This document shows positions 4,050 to 45,316 of a stretch of DNA of 64,000 nt, one piece after another. The stretch is taken from assembly GCA_903832325.1 (NCBI GenBank), contig CAILBC010000036.1, forward strand, positions 124,001-188,000, read 5' to 3'. The notes beneath the pieces were generated by a model, which was not told where the DNA came from, made no database searches, and was given only the letters and a program-made list of their open reading frames with translations. Origin of the DNA: an uncultured Sphingomonadales bacterium. GTDB taxonomy: Bacteria > Pseudomonadota > Alphaproteobacteria > Sphingomonadales > Sphingomonadaceae. Within the stretch, counting starts at the first letter, position 1. The number at the start of each line of letters is the position of its first letter. The position numbers were made by a program, and so were the translations under genes.

Positions 4050-4059
4050 CGGTGCCACC

Positions 4060-5067: not shown

Positions 5068-5369
5068 GGCTCGCGGTCCCTGGCGAGCTGCTCGTCAAGC
5101 CACGCCGCATCGGTACGCAGTTTTATGGTGAGCCATGTCGCGCCCTGAATAAGCGTTCCAAGCACAAGGCCAAGCCAGAGCAGCGCAGTGCCGCATCGTG
5201 AAATCATGATCAGGCTCGGCGCGAACAAGGTCACCACAGCCATCGCAGTGAGCATGCCAATCAGCCGCCAACGTCGATGGCGTTGCTCCAACGTTTCCGG
5301 CGCGGCCATCGGCGCCGGGATTCGGTCAGCGATCCATTCGCCAGCTCTCTTGATTAGCTCGCGGATCAC
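5064..5369 (-). CDS. Small membrane protein within tra operon, unknown function
   Basis: 101 aa, two hydrophobic segments, 4-nt overlaps with traU and traW. Confidence 0.7.
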   Translation of the reverse strand: MIRELIKRAGEWIADRIPAPMAAPETLEQRHRRWRLIGMLTAMAVVTLFAPSLIMISRCGTALLWLGLVLGTLIQGATWLTIKLRTDAAWLDEQLARDREP

Positions 5370-6007
5370 TGCGGCGCCCCTTCATGCCGCAGCGCGACTT
5401 CTTGGAGCGCGATCAGATCATCCTTCTGGCTGATCAGCGCTGGCGTGTGCATGATACCGAAACGGTGCGTGATCACCCCGTCCTGGTCAAACCAGAACCG
5501 GCGTTTGAGCGCGGTCATGCGTTCTGTTGGCGAGCCCTTGACCAGCACAATCCACACTTTGTCGGGCGCGCCTTGCTTCATTGCCCAGGCGATCTCGTCG
5601 TTGCTGTCGCCATCGATCACGACGAAGGCATGCGCCATGGCGACAATGTGGAGCGGATTGAACCGCTGGCCCTTGGCGGCCAGCAAGTTGCCGCGCGCAT
5701 CGCGGATGTCGTCGGCCAGCGTCACTGTCGGATCGAACATCCATTGCCGGTCGGCGGTTGCCGGACTGATGCCCGCGACGGGATGAGGGTGCTCGATCGT
5801 GGCGCGCGCGGTTTCAACAAACCTGCGGTTGATCGCGGCCAGTTCACCGCTTTCCTCCAGCGTATGGAGACGCGCATGGATAACCTCGATCAGATCTGGT
5901 TCGGCAATCGCCCAGGTGGTTCCGAGCGTTCCATAGTCGCGTGCCAGAGCGGGCGTTGAGCTGACCAACACCGCGGCGAGGCTGACACGCAAAACGGCCC
6001 GCCTCAC
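5366..6007 (-). CDS. traW: Type-F conjugative transfer system protein TraW
   Basis: 213 aa; ARDYGTLGTTWAIAEPDLIEVIHARL ... FWFDQDGVITHRFGIMHTPALISQ, TraW-like. Confidence 0.88.
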   Translation of the reverse strand: MRRAVLRVSLAAVLVSSTPALARDYGTLGTTWAIAEPDLIEVIHARLHTLEESGELAAINRRFVETARATIEHPHPVAGISPATADRQWMFDPTVTLADDIRDARGNLLAAKGQRFNPLHIVAMAHAFVVIDGDSNDEIAWAMKQGAPDKVWIVLVKGSPTERMTALKRRFWFDQDGVITHRFGIMHTPALISQKDDLIALQEVALRHEGAPQ

Positions 6008-6549
6008 AGGATCGGCTCCCCGGTCCCAATCAACCGGTCACGGCACACGAAACCAATCGCGGCATAGCGGCTGTCAAAGCCATCTTTGTGCGGCGTGCCG
6101 GCATAGATGCACCCGGGCGGCACCCGACCGATCGGACCGGGGGCCAAGGCTTCACCCTGTCGGGTTGCTGGTTTGAGCCGCGAAATCTCGGCGCCGTTGA
6201 CCAACACCCTTGCGCCATCCCGTGCGACGATGTCGCCGGGTACGCCATAGGCGATCTTGGCAAACGGCTTGGGGTGCTCGCCAAAATGCTTCGCCACCAG
6301 CGGCTCGTGGCCAGGATCAAACACAACATAATCGCCCCGCGCCGGAAAGCGGCCGGTCTCGACTAGCAATGCCCAGGTCGGGAGGGACTCGCTGGCATTG
6401 ATCAGGATGGCATGCCTATCGTGCCAATCGTCGAGCGCCTCGAAGGCCATTGCTGCGATGCCGAGCAGCGCGACGGAGCGCAGCCGGTCAAGCCACGGGC
6501 GGCGCGTCGGGATCGATGCGCTGGTCGGAAGCTCAATGGCTTTGGCCAT
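6004..6549 (-). CDS. S26-family signal peptidase (TraF/TrhF type) of the conjugation system
   Basis: SLPTWALLVETGRFPARGDYVVFDP ... KIAYGVPGDIV ... GDGFDSRYAAIGFV-like architecture of conjugative S26 peptidases; start MAKAIEL with GAGG upstream. Confidence 0.8.
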   Translation of the reverse strand: MAKAIELPTSASIPTRRPWLDRLRSVALLGIAAMAFEALDDWHDRHAILINASESLPTWALLVETGRFPARGDYVVFDPGHEPLVAKHFGEHPKPFAKIAYGVPGDIVARDGARVLVNGAEISRLKPATRQGEALAPGPIGRVPPGCIYAGTPHKDGFDSRYAAIGFVCRDRLIGTGEPIL

Positions 6550-7064
6550 GGCCGACCTCGCTGACTTGCGGTTTTCCATCGTCAGACTTTTGACCGGCTT
6601 GCGCAGGCGCTGGCTCGGCAGCACGGGGCTGGTGCGCATAGACTTCGGCGCGCACGGTGGCGGTGATGTCGGGCATATCGCCGTCGACCACCGCATTGCC
6701 GAGCAGGACGATGTCTCCCTTGTGTGCATGGGCGCTGACCGCGCTGTTGAGCGCCTTCAGGAAATTGGCCGTGCGCGCGGTGAGTTCTTCGGGCGCTTCG
6801 CCCGAGCGCGCTTCACGCTGGACATATTCGCGCACGAGATCGGCCAGTTCGACTTTGACCAGGTGCGGCGATGTGCTGCGCAGTGTCAGGATTGTATGCG
6901 TTGCCCACACGCCCCACAGCAAAGCTCCGCTGGCCGCCATGACGAGGCCAACCTGGCGCATGACGCTGGGCAGGCGCGGCTCGATCGGGGTTCTGGCCGC
7001 CGCTATCGGCTCGGGTGCGCTTGGCAGCACATCGGGCTGCGGCGTGTGTTGATCACTCGACATG
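6533..7064 (-). CDS. trbI: Type-F conjugative transfer system protein TrbI
   Basis: Single N-terminal TM, VKVELADLVREYVQREARSG...TANFLKALNSAVSAHAHKGDIVLLGNAVVDGDMPDIT; TrbI_Ftype-like. Confidence 0.8.
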
Positions 7065-7373
7065 AAATGCGCTCCAAACGTCACGGACAAGGCTGCCAAG
7101 GCGGAAGACAGAGATGAGCAGGAACGCAGCCAGAAAGCCGATCACAACAATCTGGTCGAACTGGTCCCGACGCGCGATGTTCGCTGCGACATAGCGGTCG
7201 GCCAGGTTGGCCAATTGCAGCATCGTCAGCGGCAACGAAAAGCTGCCGATCGCAAAGGCAATCATCGCGATCAAACCGGCGGCGGCGAGCGCATTGAGCG
7301 CAAGCCATCCGCTGATATGAGCCGATGCGACGACCATGCTTGCCCAGAACACGACCTTTGTCGGCGCTGTCAT
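7053..7373 (-). CDS. Small membrane protein in tra operon, unknown function
   Basis: MTAPTKVVFWASMVVASAHISGWLALNALAAAGLIAMIAFAIGSF...; start overlaps traC stop. Confidence 0.65.
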   Translation of the reverse strand: MTAPTKVVFWASMVVASAHISGWLALNALAAAGLIAMIAFAIGSFSLPLTMLQLANLADRYVAANIARRDQFDQIVVIGFLAAFLLISVFRLGSLVRDVWSAFHVE

Positions 7374-9919
7374 GGCAGCACCTCGCCGGGGCGCTCGGCT
7401 TTGCCGGGAAAGGCGACCATCTCGATCGCTTCGGCCATCGTGCGACCTTCGGCGACTGCCGCTTCGATCTTGGCGAATGTTGCGGGGCTCGACGAATAGA
7501 GCGTCCCGGAAAACGGATCGAGCACCAGACGGCACACGCATTGCGTATCGGGTCCGCGGATCAATAGGTCCGAATAGTCGGTGCCATGCCGCTTCAACGA
7601 GCGGAGCAGGGCGTCGGTGTAATTGTCCATCTCGAAGCGGTCCGACTTGCGGAAATCCGCGATCGTCTCGGGCTTCTGTTGGAGCACCAACATCCAGTCG
7701 GAGTTTTCAAGCGCAGCCTTCGAGCCACCCGACTTGTAGAAATCGTTGATCGACTGGGTGGCGGTAATGAGCGAGGCGCCATATTTGCGGCAGGTGCGCG
7801 AATAGGTCTCGACAAAGTCGGCCATCGCGCCACCCTTCAACATCGACCAGGCTTCATCGATGATCAGCGCCTTGGGGATCTGCCGATCGAGCTTGCGCAT
7901 GGTCTGCGAGGCGACGAACATGATCGAGGTCAGCACCACACTGCGCAATTCCTCACGCGACGACAGGTCCGAAAGTTCGAACACGGTGAGATCGGCCGAG
8001 AGATCGAGATTGGTATCGCCGAGGAAAAACTGGCCGAACGTGCCGGCTTCCGAGAATGGGAGCATCGCGGTTGCCAGATCGTCGGCCATCGCGTGGCCCG
8101 CGCCGCGCAAGGCTTCCATAACGGCATCGATCGTCCCGTCACGGCCCTGGTCATTCCAAACCGCATTGACCGCGGCGTCGATCAGCCCACGCTCGGTATC
8201 GTTGAGCCGGTTCTCGAAGCGCGCCATCTGCGATACGATGGCCTTCAGCATTGCGAGGCAGTCGATCAGATAATCGGGATCGTCACCCGCCAGTGTTGGG
8301 TCGATCATACGAAACGGGTTGAGCGAAATTCCCGCCGCCTGCCGGAACTCGGTGAAGGTGCCACCCAAGGCCTTGGCCATGTGCTCGAACGAGCGGCCAT
8401 CGTCGATGACTATAACCCGCGCATGGACCCCGGCGAGACTGGCGGTTAGGTCTTGCAGCAGCACCGACTTGCCCGAACCGGACTTGCCGGCGATCGCGAC
8501 ATTGTGGTTGCCGGCGCCGTTCTGGAACGGCGACCAGAATTGCGGCTGTCCGCGTCGGCCGACGAACAGCAGGTGCGGGATTGCCCCGCCGTTGTACTCT
8601 CCCTGGAGGGGGCTGAGCGAAGCCACGTTGGCCGAGAGGACTGTCCGAAAGCGGCGCATGCGCTGCAAATCGGTAGACAGGCCATCGGCCAGTAGCAGCG
8701 GGAACGATGCGAGCAACCCGCCAAGTTGCAGATAAGTCTCGTCGATCAGATCCCACCCGGCGGCCTTGTAGATCGCCTTCAGGGTGCGCTCATTGAGATC
8801 GCCGCGGCCGAGCGGGGAAATGACCGTAACGCTGTAATAGATCTGGATCAGCTTTTGCCCGAGCCGCACCTGCTGCTGAACATGGGTCCATTCGGCCGAC
8901 TGGCTCTTGAGCGCGGGCACAAGCCGGGCCGCTTTGCCATCGGCCAGCGTGGTGGTGCGGGTGAACTTCCAGCTGGCTTTGGCCTCGGACATGTCGGTTG
9001 CCGGAATGATCCCGGCGATCGACTGGAGGACGGGGCAGGGCAGGCAGAGTTTGGGGTTGAACACATCACCGATGACTTTTTGCGTGTCCCAAGGCGCCCA
9101 GCGTTCAGGGAAATAGCGCACCGACATTGTGCGCACGTCGAAGGCGTGCGGGGTGACTTCGACGAGGTCCGGCGCACCATCGATCACTTTGCCGGACGGG
9201 CGCAGCGATGGCGCTTCGAGGATTAGCCGGTCCTTCTCGACCCGCGTCACCAGATCGCGGCGCAGGCACTGCTCGTTGATCGGATCGAACGGGCTATACT
9301 CCGGCGCATCGTCGCCGGCGCCTGTCGATGGGCACAGGACATCGTCGATAAAACGAATGAGGTCGGTCGGCCCCAGCACGCGCGTTGGCACATTGATCGA
9401 ATCGAAGGCGGCTACGATCCCGTCGCGCACCGACAACAGTTGTTCATTCGAAATCGGGCCGCCTTCGGTCACGCCAACGGCGAAGAGCACGCGGAATTGG
9501 CGCAAGTGGAACGGGCCGTCGCCTGCCAGCGATGTCCAGGCGCCATGCGTCAGAAGATCGAGCCGATAGCGCGCGAGCTTGTCGAACACGGCGCCAGCGC
9601 GCACACGCGGCAGGGCCCATTCCTGCAATTTCTCGACGACCCGTGGGCTGGCATAATTGATGATCTGGAACTGGCAGCCGGGCAGCAGCACATCAGCAAA
9701 CAGCGTGCCAAGGATATCGCTAATGCGTTCGTCGGCGCCAATCAGCGGGGCCAGTTCAAGCACGAAACCCTTCGAGCGAGTCAGGTGGAAAAGCTGCTCG
9801 GCAGGGCTGAAGGCGCGATAACCGAGATAAGCCGCGAGCATTGGCACGGACTGTGCGTCGGGGCGGTTCTCGGGTGCAGCGGTGTCACCGGTGACGAGTT
9901 CAACGAGGCGGGCGAGCAT
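7370..9919 (-). CDS. traC: Type IV secretion system ATPase TraC (VirB4-like)
   Basis: 849 aa; Walker A GKSGSGKSVLLQDL, ALIIDEAWSMLKGG Walker B; TraC_F family. Confidence 0.95.
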   Translation of the reverse strand: MLARLVELVTGDTAAPENRPDAQSVPMLAAYLGYRAFSPAEQLFHLTRSKGFVLELAPLIGADERISDILGTLFADVLLPGCQFQIINYASPRVVEKLQEWALPRVRAGAVFDKLARYRLDLLTHGAWTSLAGDGPFHLRQFRVLFAVGVTEGGPISNEQLLSVRDGIVAAFDSINVPTRVLGPTDLIRFIDDVLCPSTGAGDDAPEYSPFDPINEQCLRRDLVTRVEKDRLILEAPSLRPSGKVIDGAPDLVEVTPHAFDVRTMSVRYFPERWAPWDTQKVIGDVFNPKLCLPCPVLQSIAGIIPATDMSEAKASWKFTRTTTLADGKAARLVPALKSQSAEWTHVQQQVRLGQKLIQIYYSVTVISPLGRGDLNERTLKAIYKAAGWDLIDETYLQLGGLLASFPLLLADGLSTDLQRMRRFRTVLSANVASLSPLQGEYNGGAIPHLLFVGRRGQPQFWSPFQNGAGNHNVAIAGKSGSGKSVLLQDLTASLAGVHARVIVIDDGRSFEHMAKALGGTFTEFRQAAGISLNPFRMIDPTLAGDDPDYLIDCLAMLKAIVSQMARFENRLNDTERGLIDAAVNAVWNDQGRDGTIDAVMEALRGAGHAMADDLATAMLPFSEAGTFGQFFLGDTNLDLSADLTVFELSDLSSREELRSVVLTSIMFVASQTMRKLDRQIPKALIIDEAWSMLKGGAMADFVETYSRTCRKYGASLITATQSINDFYKSGGSKAALENSDWMLVLQQKPETIADFRKSDRFEMDNYTDALLRSLKRHGTDYSDLLIRGPDTQCVCRLVLDPFSGTLYSSSPATFAKIEAAVAEGRTMAEAIEMVAFPGKAERPGEVLP

Positions 9920-9925
9920 GACGCG

Positions 9926-10615
9926 TTACTCGCCCTGCGGCGGGAAAGTGCCGCCGGTCGTTGCGGGGATCGTCGGGGTTGGAGCGACCGGTATAGCTTG
10001 TGCAGGCGACGGCGAAGTTTGCGCGCTTGCCTTGATCGGCGGCTTGGGCGCTTTGGCGAGGATGTCGCGGACTTGCGCCTGGATTGTACCGAGTGGTGTT
10101 GCGGCGTTGATCGCAGCAGGACGTGGTTCAGCTAGCACTTCGGATGATGGTGCCACTGCGGGAGCAGGGCTGACCAAGACGAGATCGGGCGCGGACTCGG
10201 CAATTGTCAGGAGATTGGAGCCCGCCGGATTGTCTGAGTGAAGCGTCGCGCCATCGGCCGCGACCAAACCCGACGCATCGACGTTCACATATGCGACTGT
10301 GCGCTTGTGCACATGTCCACTGGAATCGTGCCAGGCGGGATAGACCACCTTGAGCGCGCCGCGCGCCGGGTCAGTATCTGGACCTGCCGAGGCAGCGCGG
10401 GGCATGGCATCTTCTACCGATGGTGCGGCAGACGCATTTGCAACCGGATCAGTCTTGTTGGTGTCGATCGCATGAAGCGCACCATCATCGATCACGGTCG
10501 AGGGCGCGCACGTGCCATGCGGGGCCGCGCAAGAGAAGCCGCCTTTGACGTTTGACTGGACCATCGAGCAGCCCGTCAGGCCGAGCGCGAGGAGCGGCAG
10601 GAAGAAATGTCGCAT
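9926..10615 (-). CDS. traV: Conjugal transfer lipoprotein TraV
   Basis: Lipobox LGLTGCSMVQSNVKGGFSCAAPHGTC; position after traC. Confidence 0.85.
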   Translation of the reverse strand: MRHFFLPLLALGLTGCSMVQSNVKGGFSCAAPHGTCAPSTVIDDGALHAIDTNKTDPVANASAAPSVEDAMPRAASAGPDTDPARGALKVVYPAWHDSSGHVHKRTVAYVNVDASGLVAADGATLHSDNPAGSNLLTIAESAPDLVLVSPAPAVAPSSEVLAEPRPAAINAATPLGTIQAQVRDILAKAPKPPIKASAQTSPSPAQAIPVAPTPTIPATTGGTFPPQGE

Positions 10616-10618
10616 GGC

Positions 10619-11440
10619 TCAGTTGCCTCCCTTGAGCCAGGCTTCGAGGAATTCGCGGGGGCGATAGCCAAGCACGACCGCACCATCGTCGCGCACCATG
10701 ACCGGCGTGCCGGAAAACCCGTGGGCGCGCGCAAAGGCCTCGTTGGCATCGAGTCCGCTGGTGTCGCAGGTGCCTTTGGGGATGGTCTCGCCGGCATAAG
10801 CCATGTCGATGGCACCCGCATGGCCGGGTGCGCAGAGCACGGCTTCAGAGATTGCGCGCGTTCCCAGAATAGAAATCGGCCGCTCGGTGACCCGCGCATC
10901 CATCGCTTTCAGATCCTGATGGAGCTGGCGACAGTAGCCACAGTGGAAGTCACTGAAGACGGTTACGTGAGGGCCTTTACCGCCCCATTCGATCGCGCCA
11001 TTGGCTGGCAGATCGGCAAGCGACACCTTCTGTGCCACATTGCCTGCCGCTGGGGCGGCGTCCGCTTTGCGCACCGAGCCATCGTTGCCAGCATGGGTTG
11101 CCGTTGGGGCCGGCACCATGCTGTCAGGATTGATCGCAAGCAGTTTTGCCGCCGTCAGATCCTGGTGTGTCTTTAGGTCATAGACATGGCCGACGACCAG
11201 GAAGCGCGCCTTGGGATCGGTGTAGAACAGCGTTGATCCAGCCTGGACTTCGCACAAGCCAGACAGCACGCCGCAATCGACGTGGGTCACCTTTGTGCGC
11301 GGCAAGCGCGCAGCAAGTGCCTTGGTCACAGACTGTTTGGATACCGCATCACGATGGGCCGGCTCGGCCACGGCAGTTTCGATATGTGCGGCGGGCAGGC
11401 ACGCGGTGCAGGCCATGAGCAAGGAGAGGGAATGTCGCAT
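10619..11440 (-). CDS. DsbC-family thiol:disulfide isomerase of the conjugation system
   Basis: TVFSDFHCGYCRQLHQDLKAMDARV (CGYC) with N-terminal DsbC-like domain; start MRHSLSLLMACTACLPAAH. Confidence 0.85.
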   Translation of the reverse strand: MRHSLSLLMACTACLPAAHIETAVAEPAHRDAVSKQSVTKALAARLPRTKVTHVDCGVLSGLCEVQAGSTLFYTDPKARFLVVGHVYDLKTHQDLTAAKLLAINPDSMVPAPTATHAGNDGSVRKADAAPAAGNVAQKVSLADLPANGAIEWGGKGPHVTVFSDFHCGYCRQLHQDLKAMDARVTERPISILGTRAISEAVLCAPGHAGAIDMAYAGETIPKGTCDTSGLDANEAFARAHGFSGTPVMVRDDGAVVLGYRPREFLEAWLKGGN

Positions 11441-11453
11441 GAGGATTCTTCCT

Positions 11454-12785
11454 TCAGTTGCGGATGAAGACGCCGTCGAGGAACACCACCTCGACATCGA
11501 GGCCGGTCGGCATCTCGACGACAGGCTGGTACTGCTCGGCGCGCTCGATCAGGTATTTGGAGACGGTGTCGGCTGACTGGGCTACACCCTGGCCAAGCCC
11601 GCCTTGAACGATCGACGACGGCGACAATGTGGTGGGCTGGCCGCTGGTATTGATCGAGGGTGCCGTCAGGAACGCCTGCGAGTTCGTGGAAAAACCGCGC
11701 CCGAAGCCGCCCAGAACGCCCGCAAGGAAGGCCTGGCCGACCAGATTGCCCGAACGGTTGACCACGCGCCCGCGCACGCCGGTCTTACCGCCGAACGCGA
11801 TGAAACCTTTGACATCGCTCACTGCGACGCGCCCGCCCGGTTGTGGGCAAGTCATGCGCTGCAATTTGACGTACACTTTTTCGGACGAGAGATCGGCCAT
11901 CGCCGCGCCGTTGACCATGCACCCGCTGAGGTTGGTCTTCAGCAATTTGCCAGCCACATAGACCGAGCGCGCGGGGCCGGTAATGCGCAACACCACAGGC
12001 AGAGGATCGGTCTGGCTCTTGGTGTTGGTTGTCGCATCGACCCCGACCACCACGCGCGCCGTCGCGATCGAGTTGGGCGGCAGGTAGTTTTCGCTGTCTG
12101 TGAACTGGGTGGTCTTGGTCGGGACAATGCGCGCAGCAGTGCCGGTGGCGTCGCTGTTGAACGCCATCAGCTTCACTTCGCTGGAGCGTGGTGCCGCGAC
12201 AGGTGGTGTTCCGGCCGCGCTGCTGGCGCCAGGCGTCGGCGCGGTGCCAGCACGCTGATAGGTGGCAGGCGCACCAGGTCCATACATCGCGGTTGGCCCG
12301 GCGGTTGCGCGCTGAACTTGCGTCGACAGCGCCGACACCTGGCTGCGCAGCTGCTCATTCTCGGTCTGGTAAGCCGACAGCACTTTTGACCCATCGGTCT
12401 TGAGTGCCTGATTCTGACCCTGCAAGGCATCGATCTGCTTTTGCAGCTGGTCCATCCGCCCGCTGTCGCCTTGCAGCGTCTTGATCGCGGTTCCTTGGGT
12501 GGTCAGCTGGTTCTCGGACAGCGCCATCCATTCCTTGTCGGCCATCGAGCGGTTGACCATGTCATCCGTCGAAATCCGCACCGTCGCAGGATCGCTTGCC
12601 TTCGCCTCGGGTGAGGTAGCGGGAGTGCCCGAGCCGATGATCCACCAGCCACCCCCTGCCAGCAGCAGGGCGCCGATCGCGTAAAGCGCGATATGCTGGC
12701 GTCGCCGAACGGCTGCGTTGTGGGCGAGATCTCCGCCTGCAGTTGCAGCGGCGGTCGGCGAGGCGGCCGTATCCTGCGCGCTCAC
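11454..12785 (-). CDS. traB: Conjugal transfer protein TraB (VirB10-like)
   Basis: 443 aa; TM, coiled coil, NYLPPNSIATARVVVGVDATT ... GRVVNRSGNLVGQAFLAGVLGGFGRGF. Confidence 0.92.
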   Translation of the reverse strand: MSAQDTAASPTAAATAGGDLAHNAAVRRRQHIALYAIGALLLAGGGWWIIGSGTPATSPEAKASDPATVRISTDDMVNRSMADKEWMALSENQLTTQGTAIKTLQGDSGRMDQLQKQIDALQGQNQALKTDGSKVLSAYQTENEQLRSQVSALSTQVQRATAGPTAMYGPGAPATYQRAGTAPTPGASSAAGTPPVAAPRSSEVKLMAFNSDATGTAARIVPTKTTQFTDSENYLPPNSIATARVVVGVDATTNTKSQTDPLPVVLRITGPARSVYVAGKLLKTNLSGCMVNGAAMADLSSEKVYVKLQRMTCPQPGGRVAVSDVKGFIAFGGKTGVRGRVVNRSGNLVGQAFLAGVLGGFGRGFSTNSQAFLTAPSINTSGQPTTLSPSSIVQGGLGQGVAQSADTVSKYLIERAEQYQPVVEMPTGLDVEVVFLDGVFIRN

Positions 12786-25369: not shown

Positions 25370-25427
25370 GATTTGTCGAAGGTGAACCATTCCAGCAATC
25401 CCGAACGAGCAAGGGGGCGATTGAGCA

Positions 25428-26513: not shown

Positions 26514-26521
26514 GGTCTTAC

Positions 26522-31082: not shown

Positions 31083-34000
31083 CTATTTCTCAACAGGCGG
31101 GACATAGGTGATGGTACAGCCCCGGCGCAGATCAAATAGTGCCTCCAGCCCTCGTCCCAGCATCAGTATATGCTGGACGGTGGTGTCATCCTGTCGGTTC
31201 TCATCGATCTCAACAGAGCGATCATGGAAATCGTCCGTGCGATCGGTTCGGTGATGGCGCCGAACCAGGTGAAGGCGGGTCTGTTGTCCCTGGAACGATC
31301 GGGCGAATAGCTCCCCGATCTGTCGGCGGCAGTGCATGTCGTCACCATCGCCGTCGACATCCGCGGAATATTCAATGACCAATTGCTCCAATGAATTTGC
31401 GGCCTTGGCCAGCAGAGACGCAAATTGGATTTGCGCACCACGCGCATTGTGCGAGCCCAGGCTGTAGGGATCGATCACCCTAACGCACTGGATGGCTTTA
31501 CCCTTGAACAGCCCAAGAATTTCTGTGGTTGGGCGTTGCTCACCAGTACCCCTGCGCCAAATCTTTACACCTGCATCTTGCGCGATTTTTGGAAGGCTGA
31601 GTGTTGACCGTAGCTGCGGCACGACCGGCTCAGTCGCCGGCACGGTGAGCGTAGGCGCAGAGCTTTCATCTTTTGTTGGCTCTTGATCCTCCGCCTGATC
31701 TGGGCCGTCGACACCAAAGGCCACGTGACGGAACAGATCGTTGAGATCGCCTTCATTCGCATCCGGCGGGAAAAACAGGTCTTGGCTGAGTTGGCGCTTG
31801 CGTTCGATCAAAGCGTCAAGCTGGAGGTCGAAGCTGGATGGGCCGATGACATGATCAGGATGCACCGCCATCGGCAGGTAGACGAACACTTCCTTTTTCT
31901 GCCCGATCCGGAAGACCCGGTCTGTGGCCTGATCTTCGACGGCGGGGTTCCACCATCTGGACAAGTGGATGACGTGGTTCGCGGCCGTCAGGGTCAGGCC
32001 AACCCCACCCGCCTTGGGCGACAGGATCATGACGTCGAATTGCCCTGGCCGCGATTGGAACGCATTCACAATCTGCTGCCGCTTTACCCCTGGAACCTCC
32101 CCGCTGATGCGGGCTGGCACGTTGGGCAAATTAAACCGGCTCTGGATGAGGGTCGCCAACTTGTCCTGCATGGCCAGGTCTTCAACGAAGATCAGCGCCT
32201 TTTCGCCCTTATCTGCAATCTTTTTAATGACTTCCAGCAGGCATGACAGGCGCGCCGAGTCTTGTGCGTAAGCGTCCAAATCAGCGGGCGCTGTCCTTGG
32301 ATCGAGGGGATGCAACGATATGCCGCGCATTTTGGAGAGTGTGGACAAGATGCCACCTTTGCCGATTGTACCGCTACTGCTCGCAGCTGCAGCTTGGACG
32401 ACGACTTCGCGGTAGGCCCTTGCCTGCAGCGGGGGCATCTCGATCTTGAAGGGGACGATCGTCTTGGTCGGCAGGTCTGTCAGAATGTCCTTTTTCATCC
32501 GGCGCAGAAGCATCGGCGGAACTGCGCCTTGAGGACTGCTGAGTCGCTCCTTGAGGCGTTCCAGCGCATCGCGGTCGCCTGGAGGGTGCCGACGCTCAAA
32601 CTCCCGGCTCGAACCAAGCGTGCCGGGCGCGATGACGTCCATGATCGACCACAAGTCCTGCAATCGGTTTTCGACAGGGGTGCCGGTCATGCCCAAAACG
32701 AAACGACCGTTGAGCGCCTGCGCCGCGCGCGTTACCTGGCTTGCCGGGTTCTTCAGCTTCTGGATTTCGTCGTAAATGACTGCCCCGAAACGAGTCTTGG
32801 CAAAGCTGAAATGGTAGTCCCGCATCGTCTCGTACGTGGTGAGCACAATGCCGGCATCCCGCCACGAGTCAGCGTTTAGCGCAGCGCGACCTGTCTCGAT
32901 GTCGCGCGCGGACAGACTATCCTGCTCTCGTAACTGTTTCAGCGATCCACCAAAGGCAAGGGCGATTCTGCCAAGCCGAGGCGCATTCAAATGCAACTCA
33001 ATCTCTTGCTGCCAGTTCCCAAGCAGACCAGTCGGCGCAACGATCAAGACGGGAGCCTGCGCAGTTTGCTGAGCATCCGCCTTGTCCTGCAACCACGCGA
33101 GGAATGCGATAGCCTGCAATGTTTTACCAAGGCCCATGTCATCGGCGAGCAGAACGCCTGGCAATCCACGTTGATAGGCCGATACCAACCAGTTCACGCC
33201 ATCGATCTGATGTGCCTTGAGTGTAGACTTTAGGCGGCCGGGGAGCGCGATCGGGCCGTTCTCAGCTCCCGGTTCCAATTCCGCTTCAGCAGAGTAGGCA
33301 ACCTCCTCAAAATTGTCCTTGACCACCAAGAAGAGTTTGCCGGCGGAAGGGAGTGGCGCCTCTGGCTCTGGCCCGCTTTGGGTTTCGTCCCGGGTCTGCG
33401 GCGCAGCATACGGCCGCAGGGCATCAATTGCCGCGATCGTCTGATCGTTCACGGGAATGAAGTGCGGCGGAGGCGCCTGATCCTCTTTGACCCGATTGGC
33501 TATGCCGTCGATATTGACTGTCGAAACACCGGATGAGTGCGCCTTATCCACTCGATCGATGAGATCATGCAGCGCCTCGGGACTTACGACGTAGTACTCA
33601 TCACCGACCCGGAGGCCGAATTTTTCAGGGAGCCAACGGTTCGTGACGCTGGGCACGAGCCATGGCAAAACAGGTGTGCGCCAGACATCGACGCCGGAAA
33701 CCCGAGCCGAAAATTGCTCAGTTTCCACAAACAGACGATCGAGCCCGATGGCCTCAGCCTGATCGTGTCCAAGCCGCTCTCGCAAGACACGACGGGGGTT
33801 AAGCACAAAGGCCCGGCGCTCTGTCTCCGGTGCATCCTGCAGCTTGCGGACAGCGTCCAGTGCTGGCCGCAAATTGGGGTCTACAAAGACGTACTCTCCA
33901 TTCTGAAGCACGTAGACGGGCCGGACGCCAGCCTCTCGGCGGAAGCGGTCATTGGCAAATAGCTTCTGGGAAGCCGGCGAGAGGATGCTGTCTGCATCTT

Positions 34001-34727
34001 CGTCGAGCACGCTGTCATCGCCCGAGAGCGAATTTGCGCCGAACAAGACGGGATCGAACTCGGTTGCCTCAGGCGTCAGGCTCCGCAGCTTCAACGATAG
34101 TCCGGAGGCGTAGTGAACCCGCATGTCGCGGAGATAGCCATCGGCTTCGACTTGCAACTCGGCGTCCGACGGCCATGCACGCTGCAATTCCGCCAACGCC
34201 TGAAAGCGTTCTGCTTTGGGCAGCGGGCTATCGAGCTGTCCCGCCGTGTTGTAGAGCGACCAAAGCGGTTCTGGTATTCTCCTCGGTCCGGCCTCTGTCT
34301 GGATGATTGCCCCCACGGGCTCAACTAAAGCTGCGTAACCACCAGGCTGGACCCATTTGCGCGCAATCCTGAATCTATCTTCATCGATGCGATGAATAGG
34401 CTTCAAGTCCAACGCGAGACGCGTTGGCGGCGGCATTCCAAGTTTCTCGGCGCACTGTGAGTCGATCCTGGCGATCGCAGACGGTGTAAGTGCGACATAG
34501 TCATGTGACAGACTTACAGCCGGTTCACCGCCTAGTGCGTCTGGCTCGGCAAGCAGGCGTAGTTCGGCCATTGCGTTGGCAATATCGGGGACGATGGATA
34601 ACCACTCGGCGACCGGGATAGCCTTGCCACCGTCAATGAGTTCGATTTTTCCGTTTTCACCGTCAAGTTCAAAACGGAACTGAGGGCCATGACTCGATCG
34701 CTGTTTGCGCCAGTTGAAGATAGCCAT
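31083..34727 (-). CDS. zorD: Zorya type I protein ZorD (SNF2-family helicase) with C-terminal extension
   Basis: LLADDMGLGKTLQAIAFLAWL, VIYDEIQKLKN, LGMTGTPVENRLQDLWSIMD, HLSRWWNPAVEDQATDRVFRIGQ; last gene of zorABCD. Confidence 0.93.
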   Translation of the reverse strand: MAIFNWRKQRSSHGPQFRFELDGENGKIELIDGGKAIPVAEWLSIVPDIANAMAELRLLAEPDALGGEPAVSLSHDYVALTPSAIARIDSQCAEKLGMPPPTRLALDLKPIHRIDEDRFRIARKWVQPGGYAALVEPVGAIIQTEAGPRRIPEPLWSLYNTAGQLDSPLPKAERFQALAELQRAWPSDAELQVEADGYLRDMRVHYASGLSLKLRSLTPEATEFDPVLFGANSLSGDDSVLDEDADSILSPASQKLFANDRFRREAGVRPVYVLQNGEYVFVDPNLRPALDAVRKLQDAPETERRAFVLNPRRVLRERLGHDQAEAIGLDRLFVETEQFSARVSGVDVWRTPVLPWLVPSVTNRWLPEKFGLRVGDEYYVVSPEALHDLIDRVDKAHSSGVSTVNIDGIANRVKEDQAPPPHFIPVNDQTIAAIDALRPYAAPQTRDETQSGPEPEAPLPSAGKLFLVVKDNFEEVAYSAEAELEPGAENGPIALPGRLKSTLKAHQIDGVNWLVSAYQRGLPGVLLADDMGLGKTLQAIAFLAWLQDKADAQQTAQAPVLIVAPTGLLGNWQQEIELHLNAPRLGRIALAFGGSLKQLREQDSLSARDIETGRAALNADSWRDAGIVLTTYETMRDYHFSFAKTRFGAVIYDEIQKLKNPASQVTRAAQALNGRFVLGMTGTPVENRLQDLWSIMDVIAPGTLGSSREFERRHPPGDRDALERLKERLSSPQGAVPPMLLRRMKKDILTDLPTKTIVPFKIEMPPLQARAYREVVVQAAAASSSGTIGKGGILSTLSKMRGISLHPLDPRTAPADLDAYAQDSARLSCLLEVIKKIADKGEKALIFVEDLAMQDKLATLIQSRFNLPNVPARISGEVPGVKRQQIVNAFQSRPGQFDVMILSPKAGGVGLTLTAANHVIHLSRWWNPAVEDQATDRVFRIGQKKEVFVYLPMAVHPDHVIGPSSFDLQLDALIERKRQLSQDLFFPPDANEGDLNDLFRHVAFGVDGPDQAEDQEPTKDESSAPTLTVPATEPVVPQLRSTLSLPKIAQDAGVKIWRRGTGEQRPTTEILGLFKGKAIQCVRVIDPYSLGSHNARGAQIQFASLLAKAANSLEQLVIEYSADVDGDGDDMHCRRQIGELFARSFQGQQTRLHLVRRHHRTDRTDDFHDRSVEIDENRQDDTTVQHILMLGRGLEALFDLRRGCTITYVPPVEK

Positions 34728-34741
34728 CCCTCGTTGGTCCT

Positions 34742-36130
34742 TCAGGAGAATTTTCGTCCAAACAAAATGTCATTGAATGGTTTTTGCCAATTTTTATGAT
34801 GTATTTTTTTCAATGGCGCTGAATAAAGGGTCCCACTTACATAAGGGGTAGTCTGAAATAATTTTTGGGAAAAGGAGCGTTTTTTCCAAAAATTGCACAT
34901 ACTGTCGTGACTCCATTCCACCACGACCAAATCTCCGATTTCCATGATGAGCGCCGAGTGCTGTCTGCCACGAGAAGTCTCACTGTGAGTACCAAAGTTT
35001 CCGAACGAGGGATCACGACTATTGCGCGCGACTTGACGTGCTTTCGCAGCGGCATCCCGACCAAACGCAACCCAAGCACGCTCAATTCGCGGTCCACTCT
35101 TGCGGTCGAGGAAACTGGTCCAGAAGGCCCTTCGCTCTCTCCACATCCTTTGGTCATCTTCATCGTGAAGGGACAACGCGACGATTTCGAGAAACTGCAC
35201 AACCGAGGCCCTAGTCAGCCAACGCATCAAGATCCCGTGCGCCACTTGTGCCTGATCCTCGACAATCGACCATCTTGGCTCACTCTCATTTACTCTAGGG
35301 TCACCGCCGCCCCAAGCCTGCAGCCTATCCAGTATCAATCGTTTGTGTTGCTCGCTGGGTTCACGATCTTTCCAAGGCTCCAAACATGAACGGCAAATAT
35401 CGACCCAGCCTTCAGGAAAGCGACCATTGGGTTTGCCGTTATCGTTCCAGGCAAGCACCGCAGCCTGTGCAGTCTCGACCCGGTCAGAGGGGAAAGTTGA
35501 GACCATTGCGCAAGCTGCCCTGAACGCGGCCAAGGCGAGCTTAGACTGGCTGTTGACGCCTCCATCAAGGCCGACATCACGAAGCAGCTGATGCAGCGTT
35601 GAAGGGTCGGCTAATATCGCCATGGCCAGACGCCGAGGTGCTTGATCGACGTCCAGCAGATCAAATTGCTTTATCCGTTTTTCCCAAGCGTCGTTATCTC
35701 GCCATTCCCAGCGCCCTGCTATCGCACGGAGCTTGGTTGCAAGCCACCTTGTTCCTGTATCCTGGGGGTCGAAAGAGGCCAGATATGCCCCAAGCAGTTG
35801 ATAAAAAGGGGTGCGTCTTCGCTTCGTGGCAACTTCGCGCAACAGCGCATCGCCAATTTGAACAAACTTTGCAGGAGGGAGAGGAGGGTGGTTGATCGTC
35901 GTACAAGACAGTTTCAGATCACGACGGCTTATTGCCGAAGTTTGGCCGGCCAGAACCATATCTGAGACACGCTTCTGTAATTCATATGTCGTTGCCTGGT
36001 CCGGCATCTGCACCACAGTCCCAGTCAGTTTGTCGGCCGCTTTGGTGAGCGCCGCAGGCCTTGGGCGTTCTGACAAGCTAACCTTGATCGTCGCCGACAG
36101 GTCTTGCAGGGCGGCTTGAAGCCGCGTCAT
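34742..36130 (-). CDS. zorC: Zorya type I protein ZorC (EH_Signature-like domain)
   Basis: MWRERRAFWTSFLDRKSGPRIERAWVAFG...HSALIMEIGDLVVVEWSHDSMCNFW; located between zorB and zorD; overlaps zorB by 4 nt. Confidence 0.9.
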   Translation of the reverse strand: MTRLQAALQDLSATIKVSLSERPRPAALTKAADKLTGTVVQMPDQATTYELQKRVSDMVLAGQTSAISRRDLKLSCTTINHPPLPPAKFVQIGDALLREVATKRRRTPFYQLLGAYLASFDPQDTGTRWLATKLRAIAGRWEWRDNDAWEKRIKQFDLLDVDQAPRRLAMAILADPSTLHQLLRDVGLDGGVNSQSKLALAAFRAACAMVSTFPSDRVETAQAAVLAWNDNGKPNGRFPEGWVDICRSCLEPWKDREPSEQHKRLILDRLQAWGGGDPRVNESEPRWSIVEDQAQVAHGILMRWLTRASVVQFLEIVALSLHDEDDQRMWRERRAFWTSFLDRKSGPRIERAWVAFGRDAAAKARQVARNSRDPSFGNFGTHSETSRGRQHSALIMEIGDLVVVEWSHDSMCNFWKKRSFSQKLFQTTPYVSGTLYSAPLKKIHHKNWQKPFNDILFGRKFS

Positions 36131-36891
36131 TTGTGCTCCAATCCCGCTTTGATAGCCTGACGCGCCTCTCCGGCATCCGGCGTCACCATCAAAATACGCA
36201 ACTCAATGCGCCGGTTACGACGCTTCCTGTCCTCCTCCGTGCCACTATTGTCAGGCACTGGTCGTTGGTCAGCATACCCACTCACGCTCAGCACAGGCTC
36301 ACAATCCACTGGGGTCTTGGCGCACAAAGATTGCAATTGCGGTGCTTGCGAAATCAAGGCGCGGTAGGTGTTCGTCGCCCGTTTGACTGACAGGTCCCAG
36401 TTGTCCTGAAACTGCAGCGTGGGGGCCAGCCGAACATTGTCAGTGTGCCCCTCGATGTACAACGAGTCGATCCGATGAGGTGAGGCGGGGCACGACCTGG
36501 GCCGTTTCCAATTCGGTTGGGAGCTATCTGTGTAGCAGGGCAAGACCTCACTCAAGGTTGAAGCCAGATGTCCCATGGCTTTGACGCCATCGGGCTTGAT
36601 GTCTGCTCTCGCACTGTCGAACAGAATAGCATCCGGTAATCTGAGAACACCGTTCTGCGTGTCTATGGTTACAGGAACACCCTTGTTTTGAAGCGAGGTC
36701 TTCATCTGCTGTAGAATACGAGCACGCGTTTCGTTAGCCCCGAGCAACTCTTCGCGAGTGTTTTTTATTTGGAGCGCATAGTACATCATCAAAATGATAA
36801 ATATAAACAATACACCAACCATCATGTCTGACATCGAGACAAAATAATTTTCCTGCTCGGCGGCATGGTCGGTGGGCTCATCGGCGATCAC
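36127..36891 (-). CDS. zorB: Zorya protein ZorB (MotB/OmpA-like)
   Basis: N-terminal TM with Asp (MSDMMVGVLFIFIILMMYYAL), OmpA domain YIEGHTDNV...SVSGYADQRPV...RRNRRIELRIL. Confidence 0.95.
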   Translation of the reverse strand: MIADEPTDHAAEQENYFVSMSDMMVGVLFIFIILMMYYALQIKNTREELLGANETRARILQQMKTSLQNKGVPVTIDTQNGVLRLPDAILFDSARADIKPDGVKAMGHLASTLSEVLPCYTDSSQPNWKRPRSCPASPHRIDSLYIEGHTDNVRLAPTLQFQDNWDLSVKRATNTYRALISQAPQLQSLCAKTPVDCEPVLSVSGYADQRPVPDNSGTEEDRKRRNRRIELRILMVTPDAGEARQAIKAGLEHK

Positions 36892-36896
36892 CTAAA

Positions 36897-38840
36897 TCAA
36901 CCCCTTTTCCGCATCTCGCCAACCATGTCGTCGAGACTCTCGGCATATTCCTGAATTGGATCAACGATTTGACCGAGCTTGGAAATCGCGGTGGCCAACT
37001 CGCTATCCGTATCCTGTGCGAATTTGCGGAACTCGTTCAAACAACTGGTAACGGTATCAACGGCCTTCCCCAGCATCTGGTCAACGCCTTCAAACCTTGC
37101 GCGGTAATCGCGCCATGCATTTTCTGCCGCGGAATGTGTTTGTCGAACGCCGCTCGCCAATTCCTTCATCTCGCCAAGTGCCTGGGCCTGGGCAGCATTA
37201 TAGGCATCAAGGCTCCCTGCAATTTTGCTGACAGAGCTGGCTGTGTCGCGCGCGGCAGACACCATCGGCTCAGATGCCTGCGCCAGCACATTGGAAGTGC
37301 CGTTCAGTGCCGCAGCAACGCGCTCGGCTTGGCTGGCAACGTTGCCCATGGCTGTCGCGCTGCGGCCAGCTCCATCAGCACTTTGGGCAAACTTTCCACC
37401 AGCACTGTCGACATCGCGAACCGCTGCCTGGATGGACGATGCGAAACTTGCGAGAGCATCGCTCATCCCTTGCGTCGCGCCGGCGATCGCGCCTTCGATA
37501 AGCGCACGATTTTTATCGGCCGCATCGGACAACCCCTTCGCAGCTCCTTTCTGAACATCTTCAGCGGCAGCTATGCTAGCGTCAGACAGCGCCTGTACTG
37601 CAGCGGCAATCGCTTCTGATGACTTTTCTTGCGCCTGCTGCAAGCCCGCCATCAACCTGGCCAAAGCTTCGTCTTGCGCCTTCGCCGCAGCATCGCCCTG
37701 CTCAGTCATGCGCGTGCCCAGATTGCCGACGTTGGTTGTCAACTTGTCGAACGCCGCCTGAATACCCAGCGCAGCTTCGGCGAAGCGATCACCCGCTTGC
37801 CTGATCTTATCCGCAGCGGCTTCCCCAGACTTGTCCACAGCGGTGCCGATGGCATCGAGCTTTTCGTTCAGGCGCGCGAGGGTCTCAGACAGGCCCCGCA
37901 GCTGATCGCCGCTCACCTTTTGTATGGCTTCCGCTGCGCCCGCCCCAATGCCCTGCGTCACAGAACTCATATTCTGATTGAGATCATCAAGTGACTGGGC
38001 CAGCGGCGTCATTGCGCGTTGGAATTCACCCCCAATCCTCTCGGAAAGTTGCAGAGCAAAGTCCGTGTTGAATGTCAGGAGTTGATCGCGCTGCTCCTTC
38101 ATCACTTCAAGCTGAAACTGAGCCAGCGTCTGGGGCGAGACATACTGGAGCCCGCGCTCAAGCAGGGAGCAGATTTGAAGGGTTGGAGCCGTGGCTTTGC
38201 GAGTCAAATCGTGCTCGACCGTTCGAAGCCAGATCGACGCGACCAAGCCAGCGATCGACGAAAAGAACTTGGCACCTGCTACAGCGAGCAACCCCTTGAG
38301 AGCTTCCTGCGCTGCTAAAGCAGAGCCGCTCATGCTCTGGGCGGCGGTGTTGAGAGCAACAATCAACCCCAAGAAAGTCAGGATGAGGCCCAAGCCAACA
38401 AAGATGTTTGACCAGAACGACAGCGATGTCTGTTTTGGAATTATACGCAGGAAAAAGGTGCTCGGCCGGCTGGTGTTTTGGATAACCGGGGCCGTTTCGT
38501 CGATCAGGGTCTCGCGAAATTCACGCCACGCTTCAGCGAGCTCCTTGATGTGGGGACCGGCAGCGGACATAATCCGTGAAATTTCGATGAACTTGCTCCT
38601 GAAGCCGACCCGATCGGCCTCGGCATTCGGCTCCTCACCCAGAACCTGGACCAAAAAGTCCACTCGTTCCTTCGCAGCAGCAATGAATGGCTTTGTGCGC
38701 GCGACGGCGATGAAGCGCACGACCGCTGCCCCGATCAGCATCGCGGGCATGATCACGAACGGGGGAAACCACTCGTGCGTGAACATCAGCCCGATTAAAT
38801 CAAGAAACCTGTAAAGCGCGGGATTTAGCAGACTGTCCAC
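36897..38840 (-). CDS. zorA: Zorya protein ZorA (MotA/TolQ/ExbB-like) with long C-terminal coiled-coil tail
   Basis: TM segments plus NIFVGLGLILTFLGLIVALNTAAQSMSG...FFSSIAGLVASIWLR; long Ala/Gln coiled tail; GTG start at 38840 with GAGG upstream (ORF track extends to 38936). Confidence 0.94.
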   Translation of the reverse strand: MDSLLNPALYRFLDLIGLMFTHEWFPPFVIMPAMLIGAAVVRFIAVARTKPFIAAAKERVDFLVQVLGEEPNAEADRVGFRSKFIEISRIMSAAGPHIKELAEAWREFRETLIDETAPVIQNTSRPSTFFLRIIPKQTSLSFWSNIFVGLGLILTFLGLIVALNTAAQSMSGSALAAQEALKGLLAVAGAKFFSSIAGLVASIWLRTVEHDLTRKATAPTLQICSLLERGLQYVSPQTLAQFQLEVMKEQRDQLLTFNTDFALQLSERIGGEFQRAMTPLAQSLDDLNQNMSSVTQGIGAGAAEAIQKVSGDQLRGLSETLARLNEKLDAIGTAVDKSGEAAADKIRQAGDRFAEAALGIQAAFDKLTTNVGNLGTRMTEQGDAAAKAQDEALARLMAGLQQAQEKSSEAIAAAVQALSDASIAAAEDVQKGAAKGLSDAADKNRALIEGAIAGATQGMSDALASFASSIQAAVRDVDSAGGKFAQSADGAGRSATAMGNVASQAERVAAALNGTSNVLAQASEPMVSAARDTASSVSKIAGSLDAYNAAQAQALGEMKELASGVRQTHSAAENAWRDYRARFEGVDQMLGKAVDTVTSCLNEFRKFAQDTDSELATAISKLGQIVDPIQEYAESLDDMVGEMRKRG

Positions 38841-39081: not shown

Positions 39082-39222
39082 ATGAAAACGCTGCATGGTC
39101 AGGTCCTCGCGCAGTTTCCGGATTTGCGGCCTACCACCCCAAAAATGTTCCAACGTTTGTGCAACGTGATTCTGGAATCCATAAAAATCGTCCTGGCGCT
39201 GCCTGCCCTGGATATCGGGTGA
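39082..39222 (+). CDS. Putative small protein (46 aa) upstream of helicase gene; not in supplied ORF track
   Basis: GAGGGTAAAATG SD/start; MKTLHGQVLAQFPDLRPTTPKMFQRLCNVILESIKIVLALPALDIG*; ends 11 nt before helicase ATG. Confidence 0.5.
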   Translation: MKTLHGQVLAQFPDLRPTTPKMFQRLCNVILESIKIVLALPALDIG

Positions 39223-39233
39223 GCCCGGCTCCG

Positions 39234-43774: not shown

Positions 43775-44107
43775 ATGAACGACATTTCGATGCTTGCCCG
43801 TCGCTGGCTCAGGCAGGCGGAACTGGGCCGAGGCATACGACTCTCTGCCGAAGAAACTGACCTTTTGAACGCGATCGGCATCGGCGAGTTGCTGACTGCC
43901 GAGGCTGCAAAGACAATGAGGGCCCAATGTCGACTGCGGACACTCAACTCTACACCCGGGGAAAATATAGGCTTGAATGGGACCGAAGCCGAGACGGAAC
44001 GCTCCGAACGCCGTACCTCCAGATCGTATGGTATGACGAATCTTCCGGACGTAACCGCTATCGCAGCACGGGCACTGCGGAGATCGGGCGCGCCGAGGAC
44101 GAGCTAG
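43775..44107 (+). CDS. Small hypothetical protein overlapping integrase start
   Basis: MNDISMLARRWLRQAELGRGIRLSAEETDLLNAIGIGELLTAEAAKTMRAQ...; overlaps the integrase ORF by about 180 nt. Confidence 0.4.
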   Translation: MNDISMLARRWLRQAELGRGIRLSAEETDLLNAIGIGELLTAEAAKTMRAQCRLRTLNSTPGENIGLNGTEAETERSERRTSRSYGMTNLPDVTAIAARALRRSGAPRTS

Positions 44108-45213
44108 ATCGCCTATATATGGAGCGCGAGCGCGGACAGACGATCTGCGCAGGTTGTGGGCGCCCGTATGATAGCAGCGCCGGTTGGCCGGTAGTCCAGG
44201 CGATTTCTGACTACCTGATCGCTCGCGAAAACCGGGCCAGCTTCGAGTCGATCGGTCCTCGTCTGCGTCATTTCCTGAAGTTCCTCGAGGACACCGATCG
44301 CCTCGCTTTGGTCTGTGACCAGGTCGACGAGACGCTGATTGAAACCTTCAGGGAATGGTCTGGTAAGCAGCCTGTCTATCTCGGAAATATCGGTACGCCT
44401 CATCAGCGCGCGCTTGGCACAACCGAGGCGAGTGTGCGCCAGCTTGCCGCAGCGATCAATTTTGCCCACGGCAGGAAAGACACGCTCTATCCTGCGGGCT
44501 TTACCGCGCTTCCTGCCAGCGCTGTGAGCCGGTCACCGGTCTATCGCTCGAATGTGGCTGAATTGGCTCGAATGTTCCGGTACTGTCTTGATCCGCAGGG
44601 ACCCGAGGGTGAGGTCTGGACTGAGAAAATGCGGGATCGCCAAAAGCTGCATCGCGCTGCGCTTCTGCGTTTCTTGCAGATCAGTGTGGCAACGTGGTGC
44701 CGGCCGGATGCTGCCTGCGACTTTTCCACCGATCCCAAGCGCGCGCAGTGGGTTTCAAATGCCCGTGTGATCTTTCTCAATCCCAAAGGCCGGGTACAGA
44801 CCAAGAAGTTTCGGCCCAGTCTGCCGGTTCCCGAGCGGTTTGCCCGCCTCCTGGACGCGCATCCCCCTGGATATTGGGTTGGTGTTGCGAGTGTGCGCAA
44901 GGCGTTCGAAGCCATGTTGAACGAGATGGGCCTTCCGCGCGACCGTGAGACGGGAACAAAACTCATCCGGCGCTCTGTTTCACAGATCGCCCGGCCGCGC
45001 ATCGGCGAAGAGCGGTGGCGCCAAGGCGAGATCATGCTTGGCCACCAAAAGGCCAGCACCAGCGACATTTATGCGCTGTTCGATCCGGCCAATTTGGGCC
45101 TCGCTTTGGCCGTTACGGAGCAGATTATCGAAGAGATCGAAACGCTCACGCCGGGCGCGTTCACCGGAACGACACCGGGCAAAAAATTGACTTCCCACGA
45201 AGGGAGAAGCTAA
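43927..45213 (+). CDS. Tyrosine-type site-specific integrase
   Basis: GKYRLEWDRSRDGTLRTPYLQIVWYD...TKLIRRSVSQIARPR...EIMLGHQKASTSDIYALFDPANLG (LGH..ST...Y catalytic end); abuts tRNA-Pro. Confidence 0.88.
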   Translation: MSTADTQLYTRGKYRLEWDRSRDGTLRTPYLQIVWYDESSGRNRYRSTGTAEIGRAEDELDRLYMERERGQTICAGCGRPYDSSAGWPVVQAISDYLIARENRASFESIGPRLRHFLKFLEDTDRLALVCDQVDETLIETFREWSGKQPVYLGNIGTPHQRALGTTEASVRQLAAAINFAHGRKDTLYPAGFTALPASAVSRSPVYRSNVAELARMFRYCLDPQGPEGEVWTEKMRDRQKLHRAALLRFLQISVATWCRPDAACDFSTDPKRAQWVSNARVIFLNPKGRVQTKKFRPSLPVPERFARLLDAHPPGYWVGVASVRKAFEAMLNEMGLPRDRETGTKLIRRSVSQIARPRIGEERWRQGEIMLGHQKASTSDIYALFDPANLGLALAVTEQIIEEIETLTPGAFTGTTPGKKLTSHEGRS

Positions 45214-45239
45214 ATGTGCAGCAAAAACAATCAGATGTT

Positions 45240-45316
45240 TGGTCGGGGAGAGAGGATTCGAACCTCCGGCCCCTGCCTCCCGAAGACAGTGCTCTACCAG
45301 GCTGAGCTACTCCCCG
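45240..45316 (-). tRNA. tRNA-Pro (anticodon CGG), CCA encoded
   Basis: Minus: CGGGGAGTAGCTCAGCCTGGTAGAGCACTGTCTTCGGGAGGCAGGGGCCGGAGGTTCGAATCCTCTCTCCCCGACCA; cloverleaf pairs. Confidence 0.95.

What the first reader, a model, noticed from the sequence alone, without database searches (positions are those of the whole stretch)
31083..38840. Complete Zorya type I anti-phage operon (zorA-zorB-zorC-zorD) on a conjugative element
Sequence shows four contiguous same-strand genes: MotA/ExbB-like channel with long coiled tail, OmpA/MotB-like partner with a TM aspartate, EH_Signature-like protein, and SNF2 helicase. This is the published Zorya type I gene set. Its placement between F-type transfer genes and a tRNA-proximal integrase suggests it moves horizontally (inference).
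Basis: partly seen in the sequence, partly recalled or inferred. Interest (0 to 1): 0.7.

Follow-up and report, generated by a model that had tools for sequence, protein, structure and literature searches.

The report
Zorya type I with swapped module
This is a complete four-gene Zorya type I anti-phage system riding on a 144-kb integrated conjugative element, and its helicase carries, in place of the usual Mrr-like nuclease, a different module of phospholipase-D fold that is also found on proteins of other anti-phage systems.

Summary
Four same-strand genes at 38840-31083 (-) match ZorA, ZorB, ZorC and ZorD type I models over full length, in the published order; relatives with the same order occur in other Sphingomonadales-type genomes. 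The ion-path aspartate and peptidoglycan-binding residues of ZorB are invariant. ZorD groups with ZorD, not other SNF2 proteins. The 'conjugative element' inference also holds: a 47-bp exact repeat of the tRNA-Pro 3' end bounds a 144,117-bp element of lower G+C with F-type tra genes, a TrwC relaxase and a tyrosine-recombinase-like integrase beside the tRNA. They form a PLD-fold domain (closest solved fold: MITD1) with signature DPY...HDR...GRG[ILV][DE], present in a single clade of alphaproteobacterial ZorDs (14 of 14 rows, support 100/99); other ZorDs carry Mrr or nothing. The same module ends a DruE-like helicase and resembles the C-terminus of the neighbouring BrxL; on BrxL it is published as an 'HRD' endonuclease. 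I read it as a swapped nuclease or DNA-end module; activity is untested. New variant of a known kind.

The parts
36897..38840 (-). zorA: MotA/ExbB-like, three TM segments and ~417-aa cytoplasmic tail (647 aa from GTG 38840)
   Evidence: PADLOC ZorA1 E=1e-108; NCBIfam ZorA_1 215 bits > 190; hydropathy; T155, S195, S202 invariant in 16 ZorA
36127..36891 (-). zorB: MotB/OmpA-like stator with TM aspartate D22 and peptidoglycan-binding domain
   Evidence: PADLOC ZorB1 2e-89; OmpA 1.7e-6; phmmer to 8vvn 1.2e-19; D22, H149, L167, R171, R227, R232 invariant in 16
34742..36130 (-). zorC: EH_Signature protein
   Evidence: PADLOC ZorC1 1e-126; Pfam PF15611 1e-38; the only copy in the genome
31083..34727 (-). 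zorD: SNF2 helicase, 1214 aa (core ~490-1000; GLGKT 532, DEIQ 653)
   Evidence: PADLOC ZorD1 E=0 over 8-1210; best PDB match 8qy7 E=1.9e-86; tree
31083..31595 (-). ZorD C-terminal PLD/MITD1-like module, residues ~1045-1214 (DPY 1086, HDR 1168-1170, GRG 1191)
   Evidence: Absent from 8qy7, whose alignment ends at query residue 998; 13-row alignment with invariant DPY, HDR, G, C; Pfam MIT_C E=3.5e-4 on two relatives, below cut-off; model pLDDT 87.8; Foldseek top hit MITD1 2ymb E=2.9e-5
43927..45213 (+). integrase-like tyrosine recombinase next to tRNA-Pro
   Evidence: Invariant R259, K294, R348, H373, Y382 in 12 aligned proteins; no Pfam, PHROGs or PDB match; structure job did not finish
45239..45285 (.). 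right att: 47-bp exact repeat of the tRNA-Pro 3' end; other copy at contig C36:25122-25168
45240..45316 (-). tRNA-Pro(CGG), insertion site
1354..12785 (-). F-type transfer genes traN, traU, traC, trbI/traB among others
   Evidence: Pfam; traG, traH and TrwC relaxase at or left of the window edge

Best explanation
A complete Zorya type I anti-phage operon carried as cargo at the integrase end of a 144-kb integrated conjugative element. ZorA and ZorB would form the 5:2 ion-driven, peptidoglycan-anchored sensor-motor; on phage injection the ZorA tail would recruit the DNA-acting effectors ZorC and ZorD (mechanism transferred from studied type I systems; not shown here). In this ZorD clade the SNF2 translocase carries a PLD-fold 'HxR' module, joined by a variable Pro/Glu-rich linker, where other ZorDs have an Mrr-like nuclease or nothing. 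I think it most likely serves as a replacement nuclease or DNA-end-processing module (about 0.55), otherwise as a non-catalytic DNA- or membrane-binding module (about 0.4). The confidence below is for the identity of the system and of the module's fold, not for the module's activity.
For: Full-length family matches for all four genes; matches to solved type I ZorB 8vvn and ZorD 8qy7; residues whose mutation abolishes defence in ZorB I, D24 and the peptidoglycan-binding H/L/R set (PMC11890865), map to invariant residues here; zorA-B-C-D order conserved in 12 relatives and most of about 30 others; ZorD tree. Element bounds, tra genes and relaxase. C-terminal module: conservation, fold, single clade 100/99, Mrr in other ZorDs confirmed by Pfam 2e-21 to 6e-19, same module on a DruE-like helicase (1e-16) and, more weakly, on the BrxL two genes upstream, whose tail matches MITD1 at 1e-37. 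The published BrxL C-terminal HKD domain has the same Lys-to-Arg change and is proposed to be an active endoDNase (PMC12839542).
Against: No experiment: expression, phage protection and nuclease activity are untested. NCBIfam equivalog cut-offs for ZorB1 and ZorD are not reached. For the module as nuclease: the catalytic Lys is Arg in 13 of 13, and the motif's Asp (+7) is present in only 4 of 13, though in the window's copy; MITD1, the closest solved fold, is reported as membrane-binding (title of Hadders 2012, cited in PMC9477494). The E. coli ZorD chain in the PDB has no C-terminal module, so the module need not be the nuclease.
Confidence: 0.9

Rival explanations
1. The ZorD C-terminal module is non-catalytic: like MITD1 it binds anionic membrane, or it binds DNA, and holds ZorD near the ZorAB injection site; DNA degradation is done by the core shared with E. 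coli ZorD.
For: HxK lysine replaced by Arg in all 13; Asp of the motif missing in 9 of 13; closest fold is MITD1; a basic stretch precedes HDR in most rows; E. coli ZorD has no such module.
Against: Invariant H, D, R and G are what an active site would keep; the module sits where Mrr nuclease sits in sister ZorDs; BrxL HRD variants are proposed to be active (PMC12839542).
Confidence: 0.4
2. The locus is a decayed or silent Zorya remnant.
For: No promoter or terminator pattern above chance; single copy in this genome.
Against: All four frames are open, tightly packed and keep all tested functional residues; zorD E=0 full length.
Confidence: 0.04
3. Not Zorya but another MotAB/ExbBD-type motor beside an unrelated SNF2 helicase.
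For: ZorB also matches flagellar MotB and related models.
Against: Zorya type I models outscore all others for every gene; ZorC EH_Signature present; tree places the helicase in ZorD.
Confidence: 0.02

Closest known systems
Zorya type I of E. coli, Serratia and Shewanella (PMC11890865; PDB 8vvn, 8qy7)
   Same: Gene set and order, ZorAB motor features, EH_Signature ZorC, SNF2 ZorD
   Different: Divergent sequence; ZorD has an extra ~215-residue C-terminal extension ending in a PLD/MITD1-like module; the literature names an Mrr-like nuclease for ZorD
PADLOC ZorD1 model PDLC00634
   Same: Covers the whole protein including the extra module
   Different: The library describes it only as 'SWI2/SNF2 helicase, Mrr-like nuclease'; no Mrr domain is found here
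BrxL with C-terminal HKD/HRD endoDNase (PMC12839542)
   Same: Lys-to-Arg change in the motif, C-terminal position on a DNA motor; the BrxL tail read here (L198) has the same DPY...HDR...GRG signature
   Different: Motor is MCM-type AAA+ and the system is BREX; that tail matches MITD1 strongly (1e-37), the ZorD one only by profile and fold
MITD1 C-terminal PLD-like domain (PF16565; PDB 2ymb)
   Same: Fold (Foldseek E=2.9e-5) and signature residues
   Different: Eukaryotic ESCRT-III cofactor, membrane-binding; Pfam hits of ZorD relatives lie below the curated cut-off

Membership tests
Zorya type I | ZorA: MotA/ExbB-like with long cytoplasmic tail | tested here: met
   PDLC00604 1e-108; NF033914 over cut-off; tail 417 aa
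Zorya type I | ZorB: TM Asp and peptidoglycan-binding OmpA domain | tested here: met
   but NF041788 ZorB1 equivalog cut-off not reached
Zorya type I | ZorC: EH_Signature | tested here: met
   PF15611 133.8 bits, cut-off 27.5
Zorya type I | ZorD: SNF2 helicase of the ZorD lineage | tested here: met
   NF041790 equivalog cut-off not reached
Zorya type I | ZorD with Mrr-like nuclease (as described in some literature; not a strict requirement, since the E. coli ZorD chain 8qy7 and other zorABCD operons lack it) | tested here: not met
   No Mrr match in ZorD; PLD-fold module instead
Zorya type I | Gene order zorABCD in one operon | tested here: met
Zorya type I | Protection against phages | not testable with these tools
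   needs plaque assays
PLD/HKD nuclease superfamily (ZorD module) | PLD fold | tested here: met
   Foldseek: MITD1, then Tdp1 and Streptomyces PLD
PLD/HKD nuclease superfamily (ZorD module) | Catalytic HxK(x4)D motif | tested here: not met
   HxR in 13 of 13; Asp in 4 of 13
Integrative and conjugative element | att direct repeats at a tRNA, integrase, T4SS and relaxase | tested here: met
   the empty site could not be shown; integrase rests on conserved residues only

The most novel reading that the evidence does not exclude
A portable MITD1-like 'HxR' PLD module is a shared effector (nuclease or DNA-end processing) of several unrelated defence motors (ZorD, DruE-like, BrxL), and in one alphaproteobacterial Zorya clade it took the place of the Mrr nuclease in a single event, giving a natural module-swap of the Zorya effector.
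Probability: 0.45. Interest if true: 0.55.

Novelty: new variant of a known kind. Interest (0 to 1): 0.4.

Why it matters
Which part of type I Zorya destroys phage DNA is not settled in the papers I could read: ZorD is said to carry an Mrr nuclease, yet the solved E. coli ZorD and many others lack it. A clade in which the Mrr position is held by another module makes the question testable by domain deletion and swap. The module also links Zorya to BREX (BrxL) and DruE-like helicases, and to the eukaryotic cytokinesis protein MITD1.

Tried and rejected
Literature search for ZorD with phospholipase D found no paper. hmmsearch of the module profile against PDB sequences found nothing even at E=10, nor did single relatives find MITD1: homology rests on profile, fold and the BrxL bridge. 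Empty-site test in 100 congeners: only tRNA and right-flank matches; the left flank is too diverged. The genome-contig scan used generic SNF2 motifs and returned mostly unrelated SNF2 proteins. Two full-length Druantia III DruE proteins do not carry the module detectably. Plasmid and phage collections hold no close copy of the operon, and no plasmid match to the module. Integrase structure job not finished. The Nature 2025 Zorya paper is not held. The label 'nonZorya' for L089 in the tree is doubtful: its contig starts just before the helicase.

Full report
OBSERVATION. The window holds four packed minus-strand genes, zorA 38840-36897, zorB 36891-36127, zorC 36130-34742 and zorD 34727-31083. 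Each matches a Zorya type I model of PADLOC over nearly its full length (E=1e-108, 2e-89, 1e-126, 0), with supporting Pfam and NCBIfam matches. ZorD's best solved relative is 8qy7 (E=1.9e-86, ending at query residue 998; that this chain is E. coli type I ZorD is my own knowledge), ZorB's is 8vvn, the Shewanella type I ZorB (identity of 8vvn from PMC11890865). NCBIfam equivalog cut-offs for ZorB1 and ZorD are not reached, so the member is divergent, but no other system scores better.

FUNCTIONAL RESIDUES. Across 16 operons, ZorB D22 (= D24 of ZorB I, required for defence), H149, L167, R171, R227 and R232 are invariant; these correspond in spacing and context to the peptidoglycan-binding residues H186, L199, R203, R254 and R259 that were shown to be needed (PMC11890865; the correspondence beyond D24 is my reading of motif context). 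ZorA has three hydrophobic segments, then 417 residues of tail. ZorC H444 is invariant.

RELATIVES. Of 401 genomes of the order, 14 have a ZorD match at E<=1e-150. All 12 alphaproteobacterial relatives examined have zorA-B-C-D in the same order, as do most of 31 further loci from other groups. A maximum-likelihood tree of the helicase core puts the window's ZorD among these, separate from six non-Zorya SNF2 proteins.

THE ZorD C-TERMINUS. ZorD has about 215 residues beyond the end of the 8qy7 match. The last ~170 form a conserved domain (13-row alignment, mean column identity 42%, invariant DPY, F, HDR, G, C). AlphaFold2 gives pLDDT 87.8; Foldseek's only PDB match below 0.001 is MITD1 (2ymb, E=2.9e-5, probability 1.00), followed by Tdp1 and Streptomyces phospholipase D. 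Pfam MIT_C matches two relatives at E=3.5e-4 and 4.5e-4, below its cut-off. In other ZorDs this position holds an Mrr nuclease (PF04471 E=2e-21 to 6e-19) or nothing. On the tree all 14 module-bearing ZorDs form one side of one branch (100/99), while Mrr needs 7 changes. The simplest reading is one acquisition in an alphaproteobacterial ancestor.

THE SAME MODULE ELSEWHERE. In a class-level search of 386 genomes the profile also found the C-terminus of a 2085-aa protein (E=1e-16) whose best models are DruE of Druantia. Two genes upstream lies BrxL, whose own tail matches MITD1 at 1e-37 and is found weakly by the ZorD profile with the same three motifs aligned. [quoted passage not shown] I infer that this is the same module; the survey's sequences were not compared here. 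Two Druantia III DruE proteins lack it.

MECHANISM. Shown: sequence, fold model, conservation, distribution. Inferred from published type I work: ZorAB senses injection and recruits ZorC/ZorD, which damage DNA (PMC11890865). Inferred here: the module is an effector or DNA-end module of ZorD. For: position of the Mrr nuclease, invariant His/Asp/Arg, BrxL precedent. Against: Arg for Lys in 13 of 13, Asp in 4 of 13, and MITD1's membrane binding.

ELEMENT. tRNA-Pro(CGG) lies at window 45240-45316. Its last 47 bp recur exactly at contig C36:25122-25168, 144,117 bp away; the chance expectation is about 1e-16. G+C is 59.7% inside, 65.1% outside; the zor genes are 56.7%. Inside are traN, traU, traC, trbI/traB, traG, traH, a TrwC relaxase and a RepC-like protein beside the left end. 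The tRNA-proximal ORF 43927-45213 has no library match but keeps R, K, R, H, Y of tyrosine recombinases in 12 aligned proteins. A second, 33-bp att copy lies at C36:25000, suggesting an earlier or tandem insertion.

VERDICT. The system is a divergent member of a known kind; the ZorD module makes it a variant that I found described in no paper searched, with the limit that the main Zorya paper of 2025 is not held.

Noticed in passing
window 20256-29608 (+): Type I restriction-modification set HsdM, HsdS, HsdR with two DUF genes (DUF4357, DUF4268) between hsdS and hsdR, convergent with the zor operon.
   Followed up: partly
window 39159-42581 (+): 1140-aa SF1 helicase with MTES_1575 endonuclease domain, divergent from zorA; resembles MkoA/MkoC, PDC-S37 and ProA proteins below their cut-offs. 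A distant homologue lies upstream of zorA in L176, and its N-terminus shares a short segment with a ZorC model.
   Followed up: partly
C36:25372-26634 (L046:5372-6634): RepC-type replication protein just inside the left att, so the element may be an integrated RepABC-like conjugative plasmid.
   Followed up: no
C36:25000-25168 (L046): Two tandem copies of the tRNA-Pro 3' end (33 and 47 bp) in a 91% identical 82-bp repeat: sign of a second or older insertion.
   Followed up: partly
L198:6639-18367 (-): DruE-like helicase and BrxL, two genes apart, each ending in an MITD1-like module.
   Followed up: partly
C36:62453-71188 (L048): Three adjacent genes: McrB-like AAA, UvrD helicase with PD-(D/E)xK, and a second PD-(D/E)xK protein; possibly an AddAB-like or defence set inside the element.
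   Followed up: no
window 29703-30965 (+): 420-aa protein without any family match, between hsdR and zorD.
   Followed up: no
L199:5962-6231 (-) and L200:5578-6576 (+): Fragments of the same C-terminal module in short or broken reading frames, likely remnants.
   Followed up: no
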